64,000 nt of DNA from the NCBI GenBank assembly GCA_026392465.1, contig JAPLCA010000026.1, forward strand, positions 62,001 to 126,000, read 5' to 3'. Shown piece after piece: positions 5,722 to 60,979 of this stretch. The translations under genes were made by a program, and so were the position numbers. This stretch comes from Propionibacteriales bacterium. Its GTDB lineage: Bacteria > Actinomycetota > Actinomycetes > Propionibacteriales > Nocardioidaceae. The notes below the pieces were generated by a model. It was not told where the DNA came from. It ran no database searches and was given only the letters and a program-made list of their open reading frames with translations. Positions within the stretch are counted from its first letter, which is position 1. Each line of letters starts with the position of its first letter.

Positions 5722-7748
5722 CTGATTCCTGGGATCTGGGAGACGAGCAGGTCGATGAGCTTGATGCCGACGAACGGGACGACCACGCCGCCGACGCCGA
5801 ACACGAGCAGGTTGCGCCGCAGGACGCTCGCCGCGTCCGCGGCCCGGCTGCGCACGCCCTTGAGGGCCACCGGGATGAGCCCGACGATGACGAGCGCGTT
5901 GAAGATGACGGCCGAGAGGATCGCCGACTCCGGCGTGGCCAGCCGCATGACGTTGAGCGCGTCGAGCGACGGGTAGGCCGTCACGAACATGGCCGGCACG
6001 ATCGCGAAGTACTTGGCGAGGTCGTTGGCGATGGAGAACGTGGTGAGCGCGCCGCGCGTGATGAGCAGCTGCTTGCCGATGCGCACCACGTCGATGAGCT
6101 TCGTCGGGTCGGAGTCGAGGTCGACCATGTTGCCGGCCTCCTTCGCCGCCGACGTGCCCGACGCCATCGCGACGCCGACGTCGGCGGCCGCGAGCGCGGG
6201 CGCGTCGTTGGTGCCGTCGCCGGTCATGGCCACGAGGCGACCGCCCGACTGCTCCTCGCGGATGAGCCGCATCTTGTCCTCGGGGGTGGCCTCCGCGAGC
6301 ACGTCGTCGACCCCGGCCTCCGCGGCGATCGCCCGCGCCGTGAGCGCGTTGTCGCCGGTGACCATCACGGTGCGGATGCCCATGCGCCGCAGCTCGGCGA
6401 ACCGCTCGACCATGCCCTCCTTGACGACGTCCTTGAGGTGGACCACGCCGAGCACGCGGGTGTCCCCGGCGCGACGCTCGGCGACGAGCAGGGGCGTCCC
6501 GCCGGACATCGAGATCTCGTAGCCGGCCGCCCCGACCTCCGCGGGGAGCGCGGCACCGCTCCAGGCCTCCACGGCGCTCCCGGCGCCCTTGCGCAGCTCG
6601 CGTCCGTCGGGCAGGTCGACGCCCGACATGCGCGTCTGGGCGGTGAACTCGACCGGCTCCGCACCGTCGGGCAGCGGTGCACCCGTGCCGGTGGCGCCCG
6701 TGTCGGCGACCGCGAGGTCGACGATGGAGCGACCCTCCGGCGTGAGGTCGGCCAGCGAGGCGATGCGGGCGGCCTCGGTCAGCTCGGCCAGGGTGACGCC
6801 CTCGGCGGGCACGAACCGCGAGGCCCGTCGGTTGCCGTACGTGATCGTGCCGGTCTTGTCGAGCAGCAGCGTGCTGACGTCGCCCGCGGCCTCGACCGCA
6901 CGACCCGACATCGCCAGCACGTTCACCCGGACCAGGCGGTCCATGCCGGCGATGCCGATCGCCGAGAGCAGCGCCCCGATGGTGGTCGGGATCAGGCAGA
7001 CGAGCAGCGCGACGAGCACCACCGTGGGCTGCGGCGCACCTGCGTAGTCGGCCATCGGGGAGATCGTCACGACGGCGAGCAGGAAGATGATCGTCAGGCT
7101 CACCAGCAGGATCGACAGGGCGATCTCGTTGGGCGTCTTGCGACGCTCGGCGCCCTCGACGAGGGAGATCATCCGGTCGAGGAAGGTCTCGCCGGGCGCG
7201 GAGGTGATCCGCACGACGATCTCGTCGGAGAGGACGCGCGTGCCACCCGTGACGGCGGACCGGTCCCCACCGGCCTCGCGCACGACCGGCGCGGACTCGC
7301 CGGTGATCGCCGACTCGTCGACCGTGGCGACGCCCTCGACGACGTCGCCGTCACCGGGGATCACCTCGCCGGCGCTCACCCGCACGAGGTCGCCCACGGC
7401 CAGCTCCGTGCCGGCGACGACCGACTCGCTGCCGTCGGCGGCCACCCGGCGGGCGGTGACGTCGGTGCGTGCCGCGCGCAGCGAGTCGGCCTGCGCCTTC
7501 CCCCGGCCCTCGGCGACCGCCTCGGCGAGGTTGCCGAACACGACCGTGAGCCAGAGCCAGACGGCGATGGCGACGGCGAACACGCTCGGGTCGACGACCG
7601 CCGAGACGGTCGTGACGAGCGAGCCGATCCACACGACGAACATCACCGGGCTGCGCCACAGGTGCCGGGGGTCGAGCTTGCGCAGCGCCGCGGGGAGCTG
7701 CTGGACGAGCTGCCGCGACAGCGGCGTGGCAGCGGAGGTGCGGGTCAT
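5718..7748 (-). CDS. kdpB: KdpB, P-type ATPase subunit of the K+ pump
   Basis: 676 residues from ATG 7748, which overlaps the kdpA stop by four bases. The same frame stays open far upstream through kdpA, but those residues are low-complexity and carry no KdpB sequence. P-type ATPase hallmarks: TGESAPV actuator loop, phosphorylated aspartate in [19 protein letters not shown], and the hinge [17 protein letters not shown]. About seven hydrophobic segments, including [16 protein letters not shown] near the N-terminus. It supplies ATP hydrolysis for high-affinity K+ uptake. Confidence 0.96.
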
Positions 7749-9415
7749 CGCGGGGCTCCTGTCAGGGCCTCGGCCACGGGGCCGAGGGCGAGGGTCGGGA
7801 AGAAGGTGAGGGCCGAGACGAGCAGCACGACGCCGACCACGAGCCCGCCGAACAGGAGGGTCGCGGTGGGCAGGGTGCCTGCCGTGGTCGGCACCCTGCG
7901 CTGGCGGGCCAGCGAGCCGGCGAGCAGCACGACGAGGACGATCGGCACGAACCGGCCGAGCAGCATCGCCGCGGCGAGCGTCAGCTGGAAGAACGTCGAC
8001 GTCACGGTGATCCCGCCGAACGCGCTGCCGTTGTTGTTCGCCGCGGACGTGAAGGCGTAGACGACCTCGGAGAAGCCGTGGCCTCCCGGGTTGCCCATCG
8101 CGTCGGCGGTCGACGGCAGCGCGATGGCGGTGCCGATGCCGACGAGCACGAGCGCCGGGACCACGAGCGTGTAGAGCGCGACGTAGGTCATCTCCCGCGA
8201 GCCGATCTTCTTGCCGAGCAGCTCGGGGGTCCGCCCCACCATGAGGCCGGCCACGAACACCGCGAGGATCGCGGCGACGAGGATGCCGTAGAGGCCGGAG
8301 CCGACGCCACCGGGCGAGACCTCGCCGAGCATCATGTGCGCCATCACCGTGCCGCCGCCGAGTGGGGACATCGAGTCGTGGGAGGCGTTGACGGCGCCGG
8401 TCGAGGTGCCCGTCGTGGAGACGGCGAACAGCGCCGACGCCCACTCCCCGAAGCGGGTCTCCTTGCCCTCCATCGCGGCGCCCGCGGCCTGCGCGGCCTG
8501 CCCCTGGCCGCCGACCTCGGCCCACGTCGTCACGGCGAGGGCACCGGCCCACAGCACGCCCATCGCGCCGAGCAGCACCAGACCCTGCCGCCGGGAGCCC
8601 ACCAGCGTGCCGAAGGTGCGGGTGAGGCTGACGGGCACGACCAGCATGAGGAAGACCTGCAGCAGGTTCGTCAGCGCGGTCGGGTTCTCGAACGGGTGCG
8701 CCGAGTTCGCGTTGAAGAACCCGCCACCGTTCGTGCCGAGCTGCTTGACCGCCTCCTGGCTGGCGACGAGACCGCCCGGCACCACCTGGGTGCCGCCGCC
8801 GAGGGCGCGCACCGTGACGTCGGAGAGGTTCTGGACCACGCCGCCGAGCAGGAGCAGCACCGCCGCGACCAGGGCCAGCGGCAGCAGCACCCGCACGGTG
8901 CCGCGGACGAGGTCGACCCAGAAGCTGCCGAGTGTGCTCGACTCCGCCCGCGCGAAGCCCCGGACCAGCGCGACCGCGACGGCGAGGCCGACCGCGGCGG
9001 AGACGACGTTCTGCACCGTCAGGCCGAGCGCCTGGGTCGCGAAGCCGAGCGTCGACTCGCCGGCGTAGGACTGCCAGTTGGTGTTGGTGACGAAGGAGAC
9101 CGCGGTGTTGACCGCCATGTCCCAGGGCATCCCGGGCAGGCCGCGGTCCCACGGGAGCGCGGCCTGGCCCACGAGGATGGCCAGGAGGAGCACGATGCTG
9201 ACGACGGAGAACGCGACCAGGCTCAGCACGTAGCCGCGGGCGCTCTGCTCGGCGTCGGGGTCGATGCCGCCGACGCGGTAGAGCGCGCGCTCGACGCGCA
9301 GGTGGCGGGTCGAGGTGAACACGCGAGCCATGTGGTCGCCGAGGGGCACGTAGACGACGGCGAGCAGGGTCAGCAGCGCCGCGATCGTCAGCAGGCCGGA
9401 GACGGTGTCGGACAT
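7745..9415 (-). CDS. kdpA: KdpA, potassium-binding and translocating subunit
   Basis: 556 residues from ATG 9415, seven bases after the kdpF stop. Ten or so membrane spans. The potassium-selectivity loops are recognisable: [42 protein letters not shown] and [12 protein letters not shown], each with the glycine-rich filter of the SKT superfamily. Length equals that of the well-studied KdpA proteins. Together with KdpB, C and F it forms the Kdp pump in the cytoplasmic membrane. Confidence 0.96.
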
Positions 9416-24004: not shown

Positions 24005-25453
24005 ATGGACCTCACCTACGCACCGGCCCTGGAGTCGGCCGCCCTCGCGGGGATCAAGCCGCGCTACCAGCTGTTCCTCGACGGCGCGTTCGTCGATGGC
24101 GGCGGCGACGACCTGACCTCCGTCAACCCCGCCACCGGCGAGACCCTCACCACCGTCAGCACCGCGTCCGCGGCCGACGTCGACCGGGCGGTGGCCGCCG
24201 CCCGCCGCGCCTACGACGGCCCCTGGTCGCGCATGGGCGGAGCGGAGCGCGGCAAGTACCTGTTCCGCATCGCCCGTGCGATCGCGGAGCGCTCCCGCGA
24301 GCTGGCCGTCGCCGAGACCCTCGACAACGGCAAGCCGATCCGCGAGACCCGCGACTTCGACGTGCCCACCGCGGCACAGCACTTCTTCCACCACGCCGGC
24401 TGGGCCGACAAGCTCGGCCACCTCGGGCTCGGACCCGCGCCGCGTCCCCTCGGCGTGGCCGGTCAGGTGATCCCCTGGAACTTCCCGCTGCTCATGGCGG
24501 CATGGAAGATCGCCCCCGCCCTGGCCGCCGGCAACACCGTCGTGCTGAAGCCTGCGGAGACCACGCCCGTCACCGCGCTGATCCTCGCGGAGATCCTCGC
24601 CGACGCCGACCTGCCGCCCGGCGTCGTCAACATCCTCCCCGGAGCCGGCGACGTCGGCAGCGCCATCGTCAACCACGACGGCGTCGACAAGGTCGCGTTC
24701 ACGGGTTCCACGCCGGTGGGCAAGCGCATCCAGTCCGAGCTCGCGGGCACCGGCAAGAAGCTGACCCTCGAGCTCGGCGGCAAGGGCGCGAACATCGTGT
24801 TCGCGGACGCCGCCATCGACCAGGCCGTCGAGGGGATCGTCTCGGGCATCTTCTTCAACCAGGGCCAGGTGTGCTGCGCCGGCTCGCGGCTGCTCGTGCA
24901 GGAGTCGGTGGCCGAGGAGGTCGTCGAGAAGCTCAAGAGGCGGATCGAGACGCTGCGCGTCGGCGAGCCGCTCGACAAGAACACCGACGTCGGGGCGCTC
25001 AACAGCCAGATGCAGTACGACAAGGTGACCGGGCTCGTCGAGGTCGGCGCACAGGAGGGCGCCGGCGTCTGGACGAGCAGCTGCACCCTCCCGCAGAAGG
25101 GCTGGTTCGTGGCCCCCACCGTGTTCACCGACGCGACCGCGTCGATGCGGGTCGCGCGCGAGGAGATCTTCGGCCCCGTGCTCACCACCCTCACCTTCCG
25201 CACGCCCGAGGAGGCGCTCGCGAAGGCCAACAACACGCCCTACGGGCTGTCGGCCGGCGTCTGGACCGAGAAGGGGTCGCGCGCGATGGGCATGGCCGCG
25301 GGTCTGAAGGCCGGCGTCGTCTGGGACAACACGTTCAACAAGTTCGACCCGACCGCCTCCTTCGGCGGCTACGGCGAGTCCGGCTTCGGCCGCGAGGGTG
25401 GGACTGCCGGGATGGCCGCCTACCTCGACACCGACGACGAGGGAGCGTTCTGA
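24005..25453 (+). CDS. aldehyde dehydrogenase
   Basis: 482 residues, ATG start 33 bases after deoC. Complete ALDH fold: PWNFPLLMAAWKIAPALAAG, KPAETTPVTAL, FTGSTPVGKRI, the glutamate in LELGGKGANIV, and the catalytic cysteine in FFNQGQVCCAGSR. EEIFGPVL and NKFDPTASFGGYGESGFGRE complete the pattern. The position directly after deoC suggests oxidation of the acetaldehyde that DeoC releases, an inference from context. The stop overlaps the start of the next gene (TGATG). Confidence 0.92.
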   Translation: MDLTYAPALESAALAGIKPRYQLFLDGAFVDGGGDDLTSVNPATGETLTTVSTASAADVDRAVAAARRAYDGPWSRMGGAERGKYLFRIARAIAERSRELAVAETLDNGKPIRETRDFDVPTAAQHFFHHAGWADKLGHLGLGPAPRPLGVAGQVIPWNFPLLMAAWKIAPALAAGNTVVLKPAETTPVTALILAEILADADLPPGVVNILPGAGDVGSAIVNHDGVDKVAFTGSTPVGKRIQSELAGTGKKLTLELGGKGANIVFADAAIDQAVEGIVSGIFFNQGQVCCAGSRLLVQESVAEEVVEKLKRRIETLRVGEPLDKNTDVGALNSQMQYDKVTGLVEVGAQEGAGVWTSSCTLPQKGWFVAPTVFTDATASMRVAREEIFGPVLTTLTFRTPEEALAKANNTPYGLSAGVWTEKGSRAMGMAAGLKAGVVWDNTFNKFDPTASFGGYGESGFGREGGTAGMAAYLDTDDEGAF

Positions 25454-26355
25454 TGGCACGTCTGGCGGTCGCGAAGACCTACAAGCTCTACCTCGGCGGC
25501 GCGTTCCCGCGCTCGGAGTCCGGCCGTACGTACCAGGTGCACGACACGAAGGGTTCGCTCATGGCCAACGCCGCGCTCGCCTCCCGCAAGGACGCCCGCA
25601 ACGCCGTCGTCGCCGCCCGGTCGGGCCTGGCGAAGTGGGCCGGGGCGACGCCCTACAACCGCGGGCAGGTGCTCTACCGCGTCGCCGAGATGCTCGAGTC
25701 GCGCCGGGCCGACGTCGTCGAGCTCATCGTGCGGAGCCGGGGCGTGAAGGCCGCCGAGGCGCGCGCCGAGGTCGACGCGGCGGTCGACCGGATCGTGCAC
25801 TACGCCGGCTGGACCGACAAGCTGTCGGCCGTCTTCGGTGGCGCGAACGCGGTGTCGGGCCCCTACTTCAGCTACTCGGCTCCCGAGCCGACGGGCGTCG
25901 TCGCGGTGGCCGCGTCGTCCGCGTCGCCCCTGTTGCCCCTGGTGGGTGCGGTGCTGCCGGTGCTGGCGGGCGGCAACACGGCCGTCGTCGTCGCGTCGCA
26001 GGCCGACCCGACGGTGGCGGTGACGTTCGCGGAGGTGCTGGCGACCAGCGACGTCCCCGCGGGCGTCGTCAACCTGCTGACCGGCGACCAGGCCGAGATC
26101 ATGCCGTGGCTCGCCAGCCACGGCGACGTGAACGGCCTCGACCTGACCGGCGTCCCCGCGGACCAGCGCGTCGCCCTGGAGCGCGCGGCCGCCGACACGG
26201 TGAAGCGCGTCTACTCCCCGCGAGCACGGTCGGGTGGGGGCGAGCCCGACGTCACCGCCGCCCCCGGCACCGCCCGCCTCCGCGCCTTCCTCGAGACCAA
26301 GACCGTCTGGCACCCCGTCGGCGCGGTCTCACTGGCCGGCGGGTCGGCGTACTGA
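25453..26355 (+). CDS. truncated aldehyde dehydrogenase paralogue without catalytic domain
   Basis: 300 residues, starting on the last base of the preceding stop. Clear ALDH homology over the N-terminal NAD-binding part: KLYLGGAFPRSESGRTYQV, VVAARSGLAKWAGATPYNRG, YAGWTDKLSAVFGG, GNTAVVVASQADP, VPAGVVNLLTG. It ends near residue 300 with a short linker and KTVWHPVGA, so the catalytic cysteine and general-base glutamate of active ALDHs are absent. Codon use and tight coupling suggest a maintained gene, not decay. A structural or regulatory partner of the upstream enzyme is my inference. Confidence 0.85.
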   Translation: MARLAVAKTYKLYLGGAFPRSESGRTYQVHDTKGSLMANAALASRKDARNAVVAARSGLAKWAGATPYNRGQVLYRVAEMLESRRADVVELIVRSRGVKAAEARAEVDAAVDRIVHYAGWTDKLSAVFGGANAVSGPYFSYSAPEPTGVVAVAASSASPLLPLVGAVLPVLAGGNTAVVVASQADPTVAVTFAEVLATSDVPAGVVNLLTGDQAEIMPWLASHGDVNGLDLTGVPADQRVALERAAADTVKRVYSPRARSGGGEPDVTAAPGTARLRAFLETKTVWHPVGAVSLAGGSAY

Positions 26356-26430: not shown

Positions 26431-26628
26431 GTGGGTGGGGGCTTTACGGGGCCTGTGGTTGCTGGTGCGGTGACGTAGGGGGTCTCGTCCTGCTGGTGCG
26501 CTGGCGCAGGGGGTCTGTCCTTGCTGGTGCGCTGCCTCGGCTCACGCTGGGGGTGGTCTCCGAAAGGGCCTCGACCGGGCGGCTGGGTGGGGCGCTCGTC
26601 TGGGGTCTCGGGCTGCGGCCCGCGTGGG

Positions 26629-26750
26629 ACGCAGGATTCTGCGTTCGTGCGTTGGGGTTCGAAGGATGCTGCGTTTGCTACGGGATCCCGTCGTGAACGC
26701 AGAGGCGTTCGGTCTGGTTCGCGTGAAGGCAGAATCTTGGGTGCCCTTTG
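26629..26750 (+). repeat. dispersed palindromic repeat, copy 1
   Basis: Contains ACGCAGGATTCTGCGT (26629-26644) and a nested palindrome: TGCGTTT/GAACGCA arms (26670-26676, 26695-26701) around a perfect ACGGGATCCCGT (26680-26691). A second copy in inverted orientation lies at about 53165-53300, and a partial copy at 26888-26920. Confidence 0.7.
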
Positions 26751-26762
26751 GGTTGGGGGGAC

Positions 26763-26812
26763 GAAGGATTCTTCCTTCTCGTGGACCGTTCCACGAGAAG
26801 GAAGAATCCTTC
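26763..26812. repeat. perfect 23-bp hairpin with 4-base loop
   Basis: Bases 26763-26785 and 26790-26812 are exact inverted copies around the loop CCGT. The arm is relatively AT-rich (it contains GGATTCTTCCTTCTCG). No gene ends here, so it is not an obvious terminator; it is near the centre of the inverted element. Confidence 0.85.
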
Positions 26813-26821
26813 ACACGCCTC

Positions 26822-26879
26822 GCCCCTCGTCGGTGGATCTGCCACCTGTAGAGCGCTCAGAAGGTGGCGCATCCACCGC
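26822..26879. repeat. double stem CGGTGGAT/ATCCACCG with inner CCACCT/AGGTGG
   Basis: CCCCTCGTCGGTGGATC at 26823-26839 starts a two-step hairpin closed by ATCCACCG (26870-26877). The same CCCCTC-TCGGTGG ... ATCCACCGA design occurs twice at 39.4-39.6 kb, so this belongs to the same repeat family. Confidence 0.55.
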
Positions 26880-27000
26880 CGGCACGCGCAAACGCAGAAC
26901 CTTGCGTCCACAGCGCGAGCCACACCCCGAGAACCCAGACCAGGTCGCGCCCAGCCGCCCGGTCGAGGCCCTTTCGGAGACCACCCCCAGCGAAGGCCGA

Positions 27001-27217
27001 GGCAGCGCACCAGCAACCCCAGACCCCCTGCGGCAGCGCACCAGCAAGACGAGACGCCCTACGGCAGCGCACCAGCAGGACGAGACCACCCGCGGCAGCG
27101 CACCAGCAGGACGAGACCACCCGCGACAGCGCACCAGCAGGACGAGACCACCCGCGACAGCGCACCAGCAGGACGAGACCACCCGCGACAGCGCACCACC
27201 GAGCCGAGACCCCCGCA
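27001..27217. repeat. seven tandem copies of a 31-base repeat
   Basis: Units start at 27001, 27032, 27063, 27094, 27125, 27156 and 27187. Each contains GCGCACCAGCA followed by a GACGAGACCACC-like segment. Units 3-6 are nearly identical; units 1, 2 and 7 are divergent, as expected for repeats homogenised from the middle. Three diverged copies in inverse orientation lie at about 26446-26536. There are no unique spacers. Confidence 0.9.
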
Positions 27218-27225
27218 GGCGCTGC

Positions 27226-27696
27226 TCAGCCGGACTGGCTGCCCGCCTCGATGAGGACGGTGACGGTCTCGGCGACGCAGGCGGGCTTGTCCTGACCCTT
27301 GATCTCGATCTGGTGGCGGAGGGTGACCTGCTGGCCGCGGTCGGTGTCGTGGACGTCGACGACGCTGACGCGGTTGCGGATCTTCGAGCCGACCTTCACG
27401 GGGGTCATGAAGCGGACCTTGTTGAGGCCGTAGTTGACCCGCGCGACGTCGCCGGCGAAGGCGTACACCTGGGCGCCGAGGAAGGGAAGCATCGACAGCG
27501 TCAGGTAGCCGTGCGCGATGGTCGCGCCGAAGGGGCCCTGCGCGGCGCGCTCGGGGTCGACGTGGATCCACTGACGGTCACCGGTCGCGTCGGCGAAGAG
27601 GTCGATCCGCTCCTGGGAGACCTGCACCCACTCGCTCACGCCGAGCTCGGTCCCCACCGACTCGGCGACCTCCTGCCGGTCGTTCAGCACACGCAT
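27226..27696 (-). CDS. MaoC-family (R)-hydratase-like hot-dog protein
   Basis: 156 residues, ATG start. Single hot-dog fold of the MaoC type, with the hydratase-2 motif ADATGDRQWIHVDPERA (catalytic aspartate and histidine) and GPFGATIAHGYLTLSMLPF. Close to the NodN/MaoC-like enoyl-CoA hydratases of actinobacteria. It follows deoA by 20 bases on the same strand, so it may be the last gene of the nucleoside operon, although its usual substrate class is acyl-CoA. It ends only nine bases from the 31-base tandem repeats. Confidence 0.85.
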   Translation of the reverse strand: MRVLNDRQEVAESVGTELGVSEWVQVSQERIDLFADATGDRQWIHVDPERAAQGPFGATIAHGYLTLSMLPFLGAQVYAFAGDVARVNYGLNKVRFMTPVKVGSKIRNRVSVVDVHDTDRGQQVTLRHQIEIKGQDKPACVAETVTVLIEAGSQSG

Positions 27697-44821: not shown

Positions 44822-44835
44822 CGTTCCCCCTGTTC

Positions 44836-44872
44836 ACGACATCTGTCGTGGTCAGAGTACGACAGATGTCGT
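44836..44872. promoter_or_regulatory. twin TetR operator between reductase and tetR
   Basis: ACGACATCTGTCGT (44836-44849) and ACGACAGATGTCGT (44859-44872) are each ACGACA-NN-TGTCGT palindromes and are reverse complements of each other. Their centres are 23 bases apart, about two helical turns, suited to two TetR dimers on one face. Confidence 0.85.
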
Positions 44873-44892
44873 GGTCGCGCTAGGGTGGCCCC

Positions 44893-49191: not shown

Positions 49192-49476
49192 ATGACCCCG
49201 CCGGACCGTGTGAGCCAGCTGCGCAACGACGTCGACGACCTGTACGAGATCGTCTCGGAGATCCGTTCGACCGTCGACGGTCACACGGGCACCCTCGCCG
49301 GACACACGCAGACCCTGGACGAGCACACCCGGACCCTCGCCGACCACACCCGCATCCTCGACGAGCACACCCGCATCCTCGACGAGCACACCCGGACCCT
49401 CGACGAGCACACCCGGACCTTGGACGAGCACGGCGGCAAGCTCGACGAGATCCTCGACATCCTGCGCGCGCGGTGA
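49192..49476 (+). CDS. heptad-repeat coiled-coil protein
   Basis: 94 residues, ATG start. After MTPPDRVSQLRNDVDDLYEI the protein is built from about eight near-perfect heptads of the form HTRTLDE (residues ~30-85), matched at DNA level by 21-base tandem repeats. Leucine or isoleucine recurs every seven residues with threonine/histidine polar positions, predicting a long parallel coiled coil. No membrane segment. The stop overlaps the start of the following GNAT gene (GTGA), so they are coupled. Function unknown. Confidence 0.75.
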   Translation: MTPPDRVSQLRNDVDDLYEIVSEIRSTVDGHTGTLAGHTQTLDEHTRTLADHTRILDEHTRILDEHTRTLDEHTRTLDEHGGKLDEILDILRAR

Positions 49477-53145: not shown

Positions 53146-53164
53146 CCCGCCGCGGCCGGCCCGC

Positions 53165-53300
53165 GGGGGACGCAGGATCCTGCGTCTGCGCGCTGGAGGC
53201 CGAACGCTTCTGCGTTCACGACGGGATCCCGTAGCGAACGCAGCATCCTCGACCCTGCCGCACATGAACGCAGAACCTTGCGTCCCACAGCGCGGGCGAC
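53165..53300 (-). repeat. dispersed palindromic repeat, copy 2
   Basis: Read on the minus strand this aligns with 26610-26750 over about 130 bases. Shared landmarks: the ACGCAGGATCCTGCGT perfect palindrome (53170-53185), TGCGTTC/GAACGCA arms (53211-53217, 53236-53242) enclosing the perfect ACGGGATCCCGT (53221-53232), and AACGCAGAACCTTGCGTC at 53267-53284. Confidence 0.75.
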
Positions 53301-53341
53301 CACGCCGAGCGACGGCCGAGGTGCCGGCCGCCCCATCCCCC

Positions 53342-60849: not shown

Positions 60850-60893
60850 GCCGCACCTCCGTCCCCCGGCAGTGTACGCGGCGGAGGACTCGT

Positions 60894-60931
60894 CTGGACA
60901 GTCGTCAAGAAAAATCTTGACAACTGTCCAG
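60894..60931. promoter_or_regulatory. 38-base palindrome with TTGACA promoter element
   Basis: CTGGACAGTCGTCAAGA (60894-60910) pairs with TCTTGACAACTGTCCAG (60915-60931) with one mismatch around AAAA. The right arm holds a perfect -35 TTGACA (60917-60922) pointing to the SDR operon; the left arm holds TTGACG pointing to tetR. This is a clear TetR-type operator. Confidence 0.85.
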
Positions 60932-60979
60932 AGCGTCCGTGAGTGTGTCCTGCATCACCCTGCAACCACAGGAGCAGAC

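What the first reader, a model, noticed from the sequence alone, without database searches (positions are those of the whole stretch)
26443..27217. 770-base imperfect inverted element with 31-base tandem repeats at its ends
Three diverged 31-base units lead into a ~130-base block; the same block and seven units return in inverse order on the other side. The interior contains a perfect 23-bp hairpin and a copy of a repeat found 26 kb away. It has no coding gene, transposase or unique spacers. The pattern suggests a non-autonomous palindromic element or a structured RNA/replication-related locus that is kept by recombination between arms.
Basis: seen in the sequence. Interest (0 to 1): 0.75.

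Follow-up and report, generated by a model that had tools for sequence, protein, structure and literature searches.

The report
Dispersed giant DNA hairpin repeat family
Between two genes of a bacterium related to Aeromicrobium lies one of about fifty large, gene-free, hairpin-shaped DNA repeats scattered over its chromosome; in related species they sit at the same places, but their sequences tend to resemble the other copies in the same genome rather than the copy at the same place.

Summary
Window 26443-27217 is a 775-bp imperfect palindrome: 3 and 7 inverted 31-bp repeats, 128-nt arms 91% complementary, three hairpins at the cap. It is one of about 50 copies in this Aeromicrobium-like genome. 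Three of 48 other genus genomes carry the family; its 19-bp motif is absent (one mismatch) from 45 of 49, some of which show weak partial matches. Of 140 elements none lies inside a called gene; 47 of 119 sit between convergent genes (13% of background pairs). Of 39 sites testable in a second species, 38 hold an element (flanks 93% identical), yet the copy there is the closest relative for 0 of 33 elements one way and 1 of 34 the other. Cores cluster by genome (5 label changes, shuffled mean 39); homogenisation is clear in G000, weaker in G005. Orientation agrees in 22 of 25. Best reading: an old REP/BIME-like intergenic palindrome family evolving in concert by ectopic gene conversion, tolerated or used as a two-way transcription barrier. 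No Y1 transposase was found in 49 genus genomes. The four hosts lack SbcD, but so do 28 others. It fails REP size and transposase tests. New variant of a known kind.

The parts
26443..27217 (.). whole imperfect palindromic element
26445..26537 (-). left array, three 31-bp units (type A, my label)
   Evidence: unit positions
26558..26576 (+). left copy of the 19-bp motif CTCCGAAAGGGCCTCGACC
   Evidence: G000:C38:88558-88576; conservation
26627..26652 (+). inner stem, pairs with 26884-26909
   Evidence: (I11)
26660..26711 (+). hairpin finger 1 (limits read by hand)
26763..26812 (+). hairpin finger 2, perfect 23-bp stem; a C-G to T-A double change in 6 of 30 aligned copies of this genome
26831..26878 (+). 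hairpin finger 3 (limits read by hand)
26884..26909 (+). partner of the inner stem
26961..26979 (-). right, inverted copy of the 19-bp motif
   Evidence: G000:C38:88961-88979
26997..27216 (+). right array, seven 31-bp units (type A)
25453..26355 (+). left neighbour, aldehyde dehydrogenase family, reads toward the element
27226..27696 (-). right neighbour, MaoC-like dehydratase, reads toward the element
53157..53337 (.). small core-only relative in which no copy of the 19-bp motif was found (two mismatches), between two genes on the + strand

Best explanation
The locus is one copy of an old, non-coding, dispersed family of large intergenic palindromes (a BIME-like mosaic: inverted 31-bp arrays, a conserved inverted 19-bp motif, a long stem, three hairpin fingers). 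Shown here: copies occupy the same intergenic slots in two species, mostly in the same orientation, but resemble other copies of their own genome more than the copy in the same slot. Inferred: hairpins or cruciforms formed at these loci during replication or transcription cause breaks or stalls that are repaired by RecA-type recombination from another copy, so copies convert one another in place. Intra-palindrome templating, or selection on pairing, keeps the arms complementary. Inferred too: they survive because they sit at gene 3' ends, above all between convergent genes, where they are harmless or act as a barrier to read-through from both sides.
For: Motif hits forward/reverse 49/53 in G000, 50/48 in G005, 41/40 in G019, 38/48 in G029. 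38 of 39 G000 sites with both flanks found in G005 hold an element, flank identity 93.3%. From G000 the ortholog is best hit in 0 of 33 and the best hit lies in the own genome in 33 of 33; from G005 these are 1 of 34 and 31 of 34. Orthologous cores differ by 0.243 on average (23 pairs), far more than flanks. Tree of 91 cores: 5 genome-label changes, shuffled mean 39.3, minimum 32 of 500. Orientation agrees in 22 of 25 (binomial p 1.6e-4). Array type agrees on 46 of 57 typed sides, of 66 (Fisher p 3e-6). Identity is clustered along 30 G000 cores: 0 of 200 site permutations reach the summed squared run length. Pairing cells 77.7% against 36-47% when slid, double-change cells 320 against 158-211 slid. 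Convergent pairs 47 of 119 against 111 of 832, odds ratio 4.2, p 8e-11; median distance to stop codons 33 bp, to start codons 78 bp. Arms read inward are G+T rich, 0.61 against 0.47 in flanks.
Against: Homogenisation is uneven: mean distance within G005 (0.281) is larger than between G000 and G005 (0.255), and only 36% of G005 paralogs are closer than the G000 ortholog, against 95% in G000; G005 looks like several subfamilies. Copies within a genome still differ by 14-28% on average, minimum 6.5%. In the permutation test the longest identical run (53 sites) is not beyond the permutations (maximum 70), uneven mutation rates can give the same clustering, and six more divergent G000 cores were left out of it. 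The three orientation disagreements, and some agreements, rest on near-equal scores. The number of pairs with a double change (67 against 68.5) and of pair types (189 against 198) do not exceed the shuffles. There is no step in vertical signal at the 19-bp motif: mean ortholog rank 0.30 just outside, 0.44 just inside, 0.31 further inside. No transcription, termination or break data exist.
Confidence: 0.6

Rival explanations
1. A non-autonomous mobile element (MITE-, PATE- or REPIN-like) that invades intergenic hot spots and is still moving with a helper transposase.
For: Dispersed copies, inverted repeats, intergenic bias; in G019 a convergent site filled in G000 and G005 is empty (46-47 bp between flanks); a 7-bp gap at the window's site in G064; G005 copies in several subfamilies.
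Against: 38 of 39 testable sites shared with G005 and orientation mostly kept; no clear target duplication at the empty site (by eye); no Y1 transposase found in 49 genomes (other transposase families were not searched); no match in 50,697 phage or 72,556 plasmid records.
Confidence: 0.16
2. A functional bidirectional transcription terminator or insulator family whose structure is held by selection at the RNA level.
For: Convergent enrichment and closeness to stop codons; fold kept through double changes; G+T-rich inward arms; G.T 438 against A.C 336 over nine of 13 helices.
Against: G.T against A.C in the arms is 126/86, 79/92 and 42/53 in G000, G005 and G019; at the window's site G064 has a 7-bp gap and G029 an unrelated palindrome, so this slot does not need it; 47% of counted copies lie between tandem genes and 13% between divergent ones.
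Confidence: 0.15
3. Sites for a chromosome-organising or recombination protein that binds the inverted 19-bp motif; palindrome and arrays are accessory.
For: The motif is 98% conserved over 44 cores from three genomes where other core columns average 74%; the best other 19-column window reaches 91% (cores were picked by the motif at three mismatches or fewer, which favours it). About 50 mostly paired copies.
Against: The motif is absent, to one mismatch, from 45 of 49 genus genomes; no candidate protein was looked for.
Confidence: 0.08

Closest known systems
REP / BIME (repetitive extragenic palindromes and their mosaics)
   Same: Dispersed, intergenic, palindromic, mosaic, mainly between convergent and unidirectional genes (PMC3733652, passages), targets of insertion sequences (PMC1525189, passages); gene conversion was raised for REPs (Higgins 1988, seen only as a reference title).
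   Different: REPs are 20-40 bp (PMC3733652, start of abstract); here the median is 641 bp with 31-bp arrays, an inverted 19-bp motif and three hairpins; no Y1 transposase found in the genus.
REPINs (PMC3116915, search listing only; that they are paired inverted REPs moved by RAYTs is recalled)
   Same: Inverted pair of short motifs around a variable core, many copies.
   Different: Core mostly about 420-460 bp in G000, no RAYT found, old shared sites.
PATEs / MITEs (recalled)
   Same: Palindromic, gene-free, multi-copy.
   Different: No target duplication seen and no Y1 helper found; within-genome resemblance at fixed sites.
A 246-bp interrupted palindrome in the E. coli chromosome, studied with SbcCD and RecA (PMC3315005, abstract and outline)
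   Same: Interrupted palindrome of hundreds of bp that forms hairpins.
   Different: One palindrome under study there (engineered, recalled); here about 50 natural copies in a genome where no SbcD was found.

Membership tests
REP/BIME | short (20-40 bp) palindromic unit in high copy | tested here: not met
   median 641 bp, range 168-851, n=119; the hairpin fingers are about 50 bp each
REP/BIME | intergenic, favouring convergent and tandem gene pairs | tested here: met
   0 of 140 inside a called gene; convergent 47, tandem 56, divergent 16 of 119
REP/REPIN | RAYT (Y1 transposase, PF01797) in the genome | tested here: not met
   0 of 49 genus genomes; the control search rings in 5 of 14 known genomes
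REP | GTAG or CGTC tag at one end | not tested
   no systematic scan was made
MITE / transposon | target-site duplication and empty sites | tested here: inconclusive
   empty site in G019 and a 7-bp gap in G064 seen; no duplication visible by eye
IS200/IS605-derived (PATE) | related Y1 transposase present | tested here: not met
structured RNA family | match to a known Rfam family | tested here: not met
   two hits, 29.7 and 21.3 bits against gathering scores of 90 and 69; the second lies outside the element
structured RNA family | compensatory changes in stems | tested here: met
   double-change cells 320 against 228 shuffled and 158-211 slid, though not the number of pairs or pair types; DNA-level palindrome correction would give the same
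CRISPR | repeats separated by unique spacers | tested here: not met
   31-bp units abut head to tail

The most novel reading that the evidence does not exclude
A self-homogenising chromosomal network: about 50 giant palindromes act as break or stall points whose repair from one another rewrites them together, in a lineage that lacks the palindrome nuclease SbcCD, with a near-invariant inverted 19-bp motif bound by a protein that uses these loci as paired landmarks or transcription barriers at gene ends.
Probability: 0.17. Interest if true: 0.82.

Novelty: new variant of a known kind. Interest (0 to 1): 0.56.

Why it matters
It is a natural case in which site and orientation evolve apart from content: slots are inherited while sequences come to resemble other copies of the same genome. 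That makes it a bacterial test bed for ectopic gene conversion between non-coding palindromes, an old idea for REP sequences, and for how palindromes of more than 600 bp survive where no SbcD is found. The window's own slot also shows that a site between convergent genes can hold an unrelated palindrome in a relative (G029).

Tried and rejected
Tried and rejected: (1) Autonomous version. G005 has three copies with about 1.1 kb more between the arms; the same 221-aa ORF stands in all three and matches the IS30-family transposase model from position 70, so these are insertions into the hairpins, not an element-coded mobiliser. (2) RAYT/REP and IS200 mobility: no Y1 transposase in 49 genomes. (3) CRISPR: no spacers. 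(4) Known RNA: none. (5) Phage or plasmid origin: no match. Three viral-contig hits and one Acrocarpospora hit of the motif are single 20-bp matches that my gene caller places inside genes. (6) Cassette exchange bounded by the 19-bp motif: no step in vertical signal there. (7) SbcD loss as the specific permissive cause: consistent, but chance of 0 in 4 is 0.17. (8) Strand-specific RNA selection by G.U excess: inconsistent. Passages of PMC12306157 (REP survey; no mention of Aeromicrobium in its main text) and PMC2267715 (stem-loop families) gave nothing nearer.

Rows dropped before counts: 15 contig-edge copies of G000 and 6 IS-split rows of G005 were left out, giving 119 of 140 in the context count. 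49 of 140 elements lacked a recognisable motif pair (three mismatches, 250-700 bp apart) and are not in the 91-core tree. Alignment A1 uses 30 of 36 G000 cores; the six left out by my choice are among the more divergent. A2 uses 44 of 83 (9 of 36 G000, 21 of 33 G005, 14 of 14 G019). G019 was sampled at 20 regions that I chose; G029 copies are in no tree and no context count. Orthologous pairs were copied by hand (25, 33 and 25 pairs; the identity profile used 32). The gene-pair background comes from regions fetched around elements, not whole genomes. In one search only 40 of 174 first-look candidates were scored. Genes were called by my own codon model, not by a published program.

Full report
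WHAT IS THERE. An exact 20-base form of the family's motif finds Aeromicrobium sp. CnD17-E in 13 of 14 stretches of a named collection, so the host is Aeromicrobium-like. At 26443-27217, between an aldehyde dehydrogenase gene on + and a MaoC-like gene on -, lies an imperfect palindrome: three 31-bp units, a 128-nt arm, a core, the same arm inverted (91% complementary) and seven 31-bp units. As a single strand it folds into one long rod capped by three hairpins, -550.6 kcal/mol, z -21 against 20 shuffles; the core alone gives z -17 against 100 shuffles.

HOW MANY AND WHERE. In one search, 41 listed stretches of G000 score above 400 bits, one of them a second reading of the same place; only 40 of 174 first-look candidates were scored. 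The inverted 19-bp motif CTCCGAAAGGGCCTCGACC gives, at two mismatches or fewer, 49 forward and 53 reverse hits in G000, 50/48 in G005, 41/40 in G019 and 38/48 in G029, against 0-1 for the reversed control pattern. At one mismatch or fewer it is in 4 of 49 genus genomes. In one search, 12 of 58 genomes match the 775 bp at E <= 0.001: these four strongly, and seven other genus genomes and one of the same order weakly (E 7e-10 to 9e-4), so fragments of the core may reach further. In fetched regions of three genomes I delimited 140 elements; none lies inside a called gene. Of 119 counted, 47 lie between convergent genes, 56 between tandem and 16 between divergent ones; of 832 element-free gene pairs in the same regions, 111 are convergent (odds ratio 4.2, p 8e-11). 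They lie closer to stop codons (median 33 bp, n=157) than to start codons (78 bp, n=96). Arms read inward are G+T rich, 0.61 against 0.47 in flanks; the first half exceeds the second in 103 of 103 copies above 450 bp.

SITES ARE INHERITED, SEQUENCES MOSTLY NOT. For 39 of 47 non-edge G000 elements both flanks were found at one place in the G005 regions, and 38 of these places hold an element; flank identity averages 93.3%. For G019, sampled in part, 4 of 6 (from G000) and 7 of 9 (from G005) testable places hold one. Yet from G000 the ortholog is never the best match (0 of 33), and the best match is always in the own genome; from G005 these are 1 of 34 and 31 of 34. A tree of 91 cores needs 5 changes of genome label against a shuffled mean of 39.3 and a minimum of 32 in 500. 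Orientation agrees in 22 of 25 pairs, though it was assigned by BLAST score and some margins are small. The array type agrees on 46 of 57 typed sides, of 66, more than chance (p 3e-6). Among 30 of 36 G000 cores identity is clustered along the sequence: no permutation of 200 reaches the summed squared run length, but the longest run (53) is within the permuted range (to 70). I read this as in-place conversion between copies: independent insertion would hardly reproduce 38 sites, and plain divergence would leave orthologs closest.

RESULTS AGAINST THAT READING. The mean distance within G005 (0.281) exceeds that between G000 and G005 (0.255). Seen from orthologous cores, 95% of G000 paralogs but only 36% of G005 paralogs are closer than the ortholog (23 pairs). 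So homogenisation is strong in G000, fair in G019 (0.176 within) and weak in G005, which holds several subfamilies. A sharper version, exchange of a cassette bounded by the 19-bp motif, is not supported: the ortholog's rank does not step at the motif.

STRUCTURE. Across 44 cores from three genomes, 77.7% of 6962 cells of the window's fold pair, against 36-47% when partners are slid; the fold was derived from one of these sequences, which favours it. Shuffles within columns give 75.1%. Double-change cells number 320 against 158-211 slid and 228 shuffled; finger 2 pairs in 88% of cells. The number of pairs with a double change (67) and of pair types (189) do not exceed the shuffles (68.5 and 198). 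Within G000 only 4 of 117 predicted pairs have double changes. Complementarity can be kept by selection or by copying one arm from the other, and the data do not separate these: G.T against A.C mismatches are 126/86, 79/92 and 42/53 in the arms of the three genomes, and 438/336 over nine of 13 helices. The 19-bp motif is 98% conserved where other core columns average 74%; cores were chosen by that motif at up to three mismatches, which favours it.

TURNOVER OF SLOTS. At the window's own site, G005 and G019 hold family members, G064 has 7 bp between the two genes, and G029 holds an unrelated palindrome (GTTTACCACGG..CCGTGGTAAAC) that itself has 21 places in G029 and 22 in G018. Another slot filled in G000 and G005 is empty in G019. 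Three G005 copies carry an IS30-family insertion between the arms.

WHO MOVES OR CLEAVES THEM. No Y1 transposase was found in 49 genomes; other transposase families were not searched. SbcD, part of the hairpin nuclease SbcCD of E. coli (PMC3315005, abstract), scores over cut-off in 17 of 49 genomes, and a genus SbcD finds the same 17 strongly; neither search finds any match in the four hosts. It is also below cut-off in 28 others (14 of them with weak partial matches, and some of the genomes incomplete), and the chance of 0 in 4 is 0.17. The four hosts are near relatives, so this is only consistent with tolerance of palindromes.

HOW IT MOST LIKELY WORKS. Shown: dispersed family, intergenic and 3'-end bias, inherited slots, resemblance within genomes, kept pairing. 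Inferred: hairpin or cruciform formation leads to breaks or stalls, and recombinational repair from other copies rewrites them; placement at gene ends makes them harmless or useful as two-way transcription barriers. Not shown: expression, termination, protein binding, breaks.

COMPARISON. It resembles REP/BIME repeats in place and mosaic build (PMC3733652 and PMC1525189, passages), but it is not a REP by size or transposase; the REP end tag was not tested. Searches listed no report of such a family in Aeromicrobium. Verdict: a new variant of a known kind, of good but not top interest, because mechanism and function are inferred.

Noticed in passing
L195 (G029), about 1237-1489: A second, unrelated palindromic repeat family (24-bp palindrome GTTTACCACGGTCCCGTGGTAAAC, often paired 62 bp apart) fills the window's slot in G029; 21 places in G029, 22 in G018, 6 or fewer in 11 other genomes.
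   Followed up: partly
L136, L161, L166 (G005): IS30-family insertions lie between the arms of three copies, a natural case of an insertion sequence in hairpins.
   Followed up: partly
L023 and L028 (G000, near ends of contigs C24 and C35): Sequence beside two copies near contig ends looks like the start of an IS3-type transposase ORF; seen by eye, name from recall.
   Followed up: no
L240 about 7600-7800 (G005): Where G000 L108 holds an element, G005 has a different hairpin-rich stretch plus what looks like a remnant of type B units.
   Followed up: no
window 49269-49449: Tandem repeat of 21/42/63 bp overlapping a called gene, likely a coding repeat.
   Followed up: no
window 60893-60932 and 44835-44873: Two further strong intergenic hairpins (stems 18 and 16 bp, up to one mismatch) that look unrelated to this family.
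   Followed up: no
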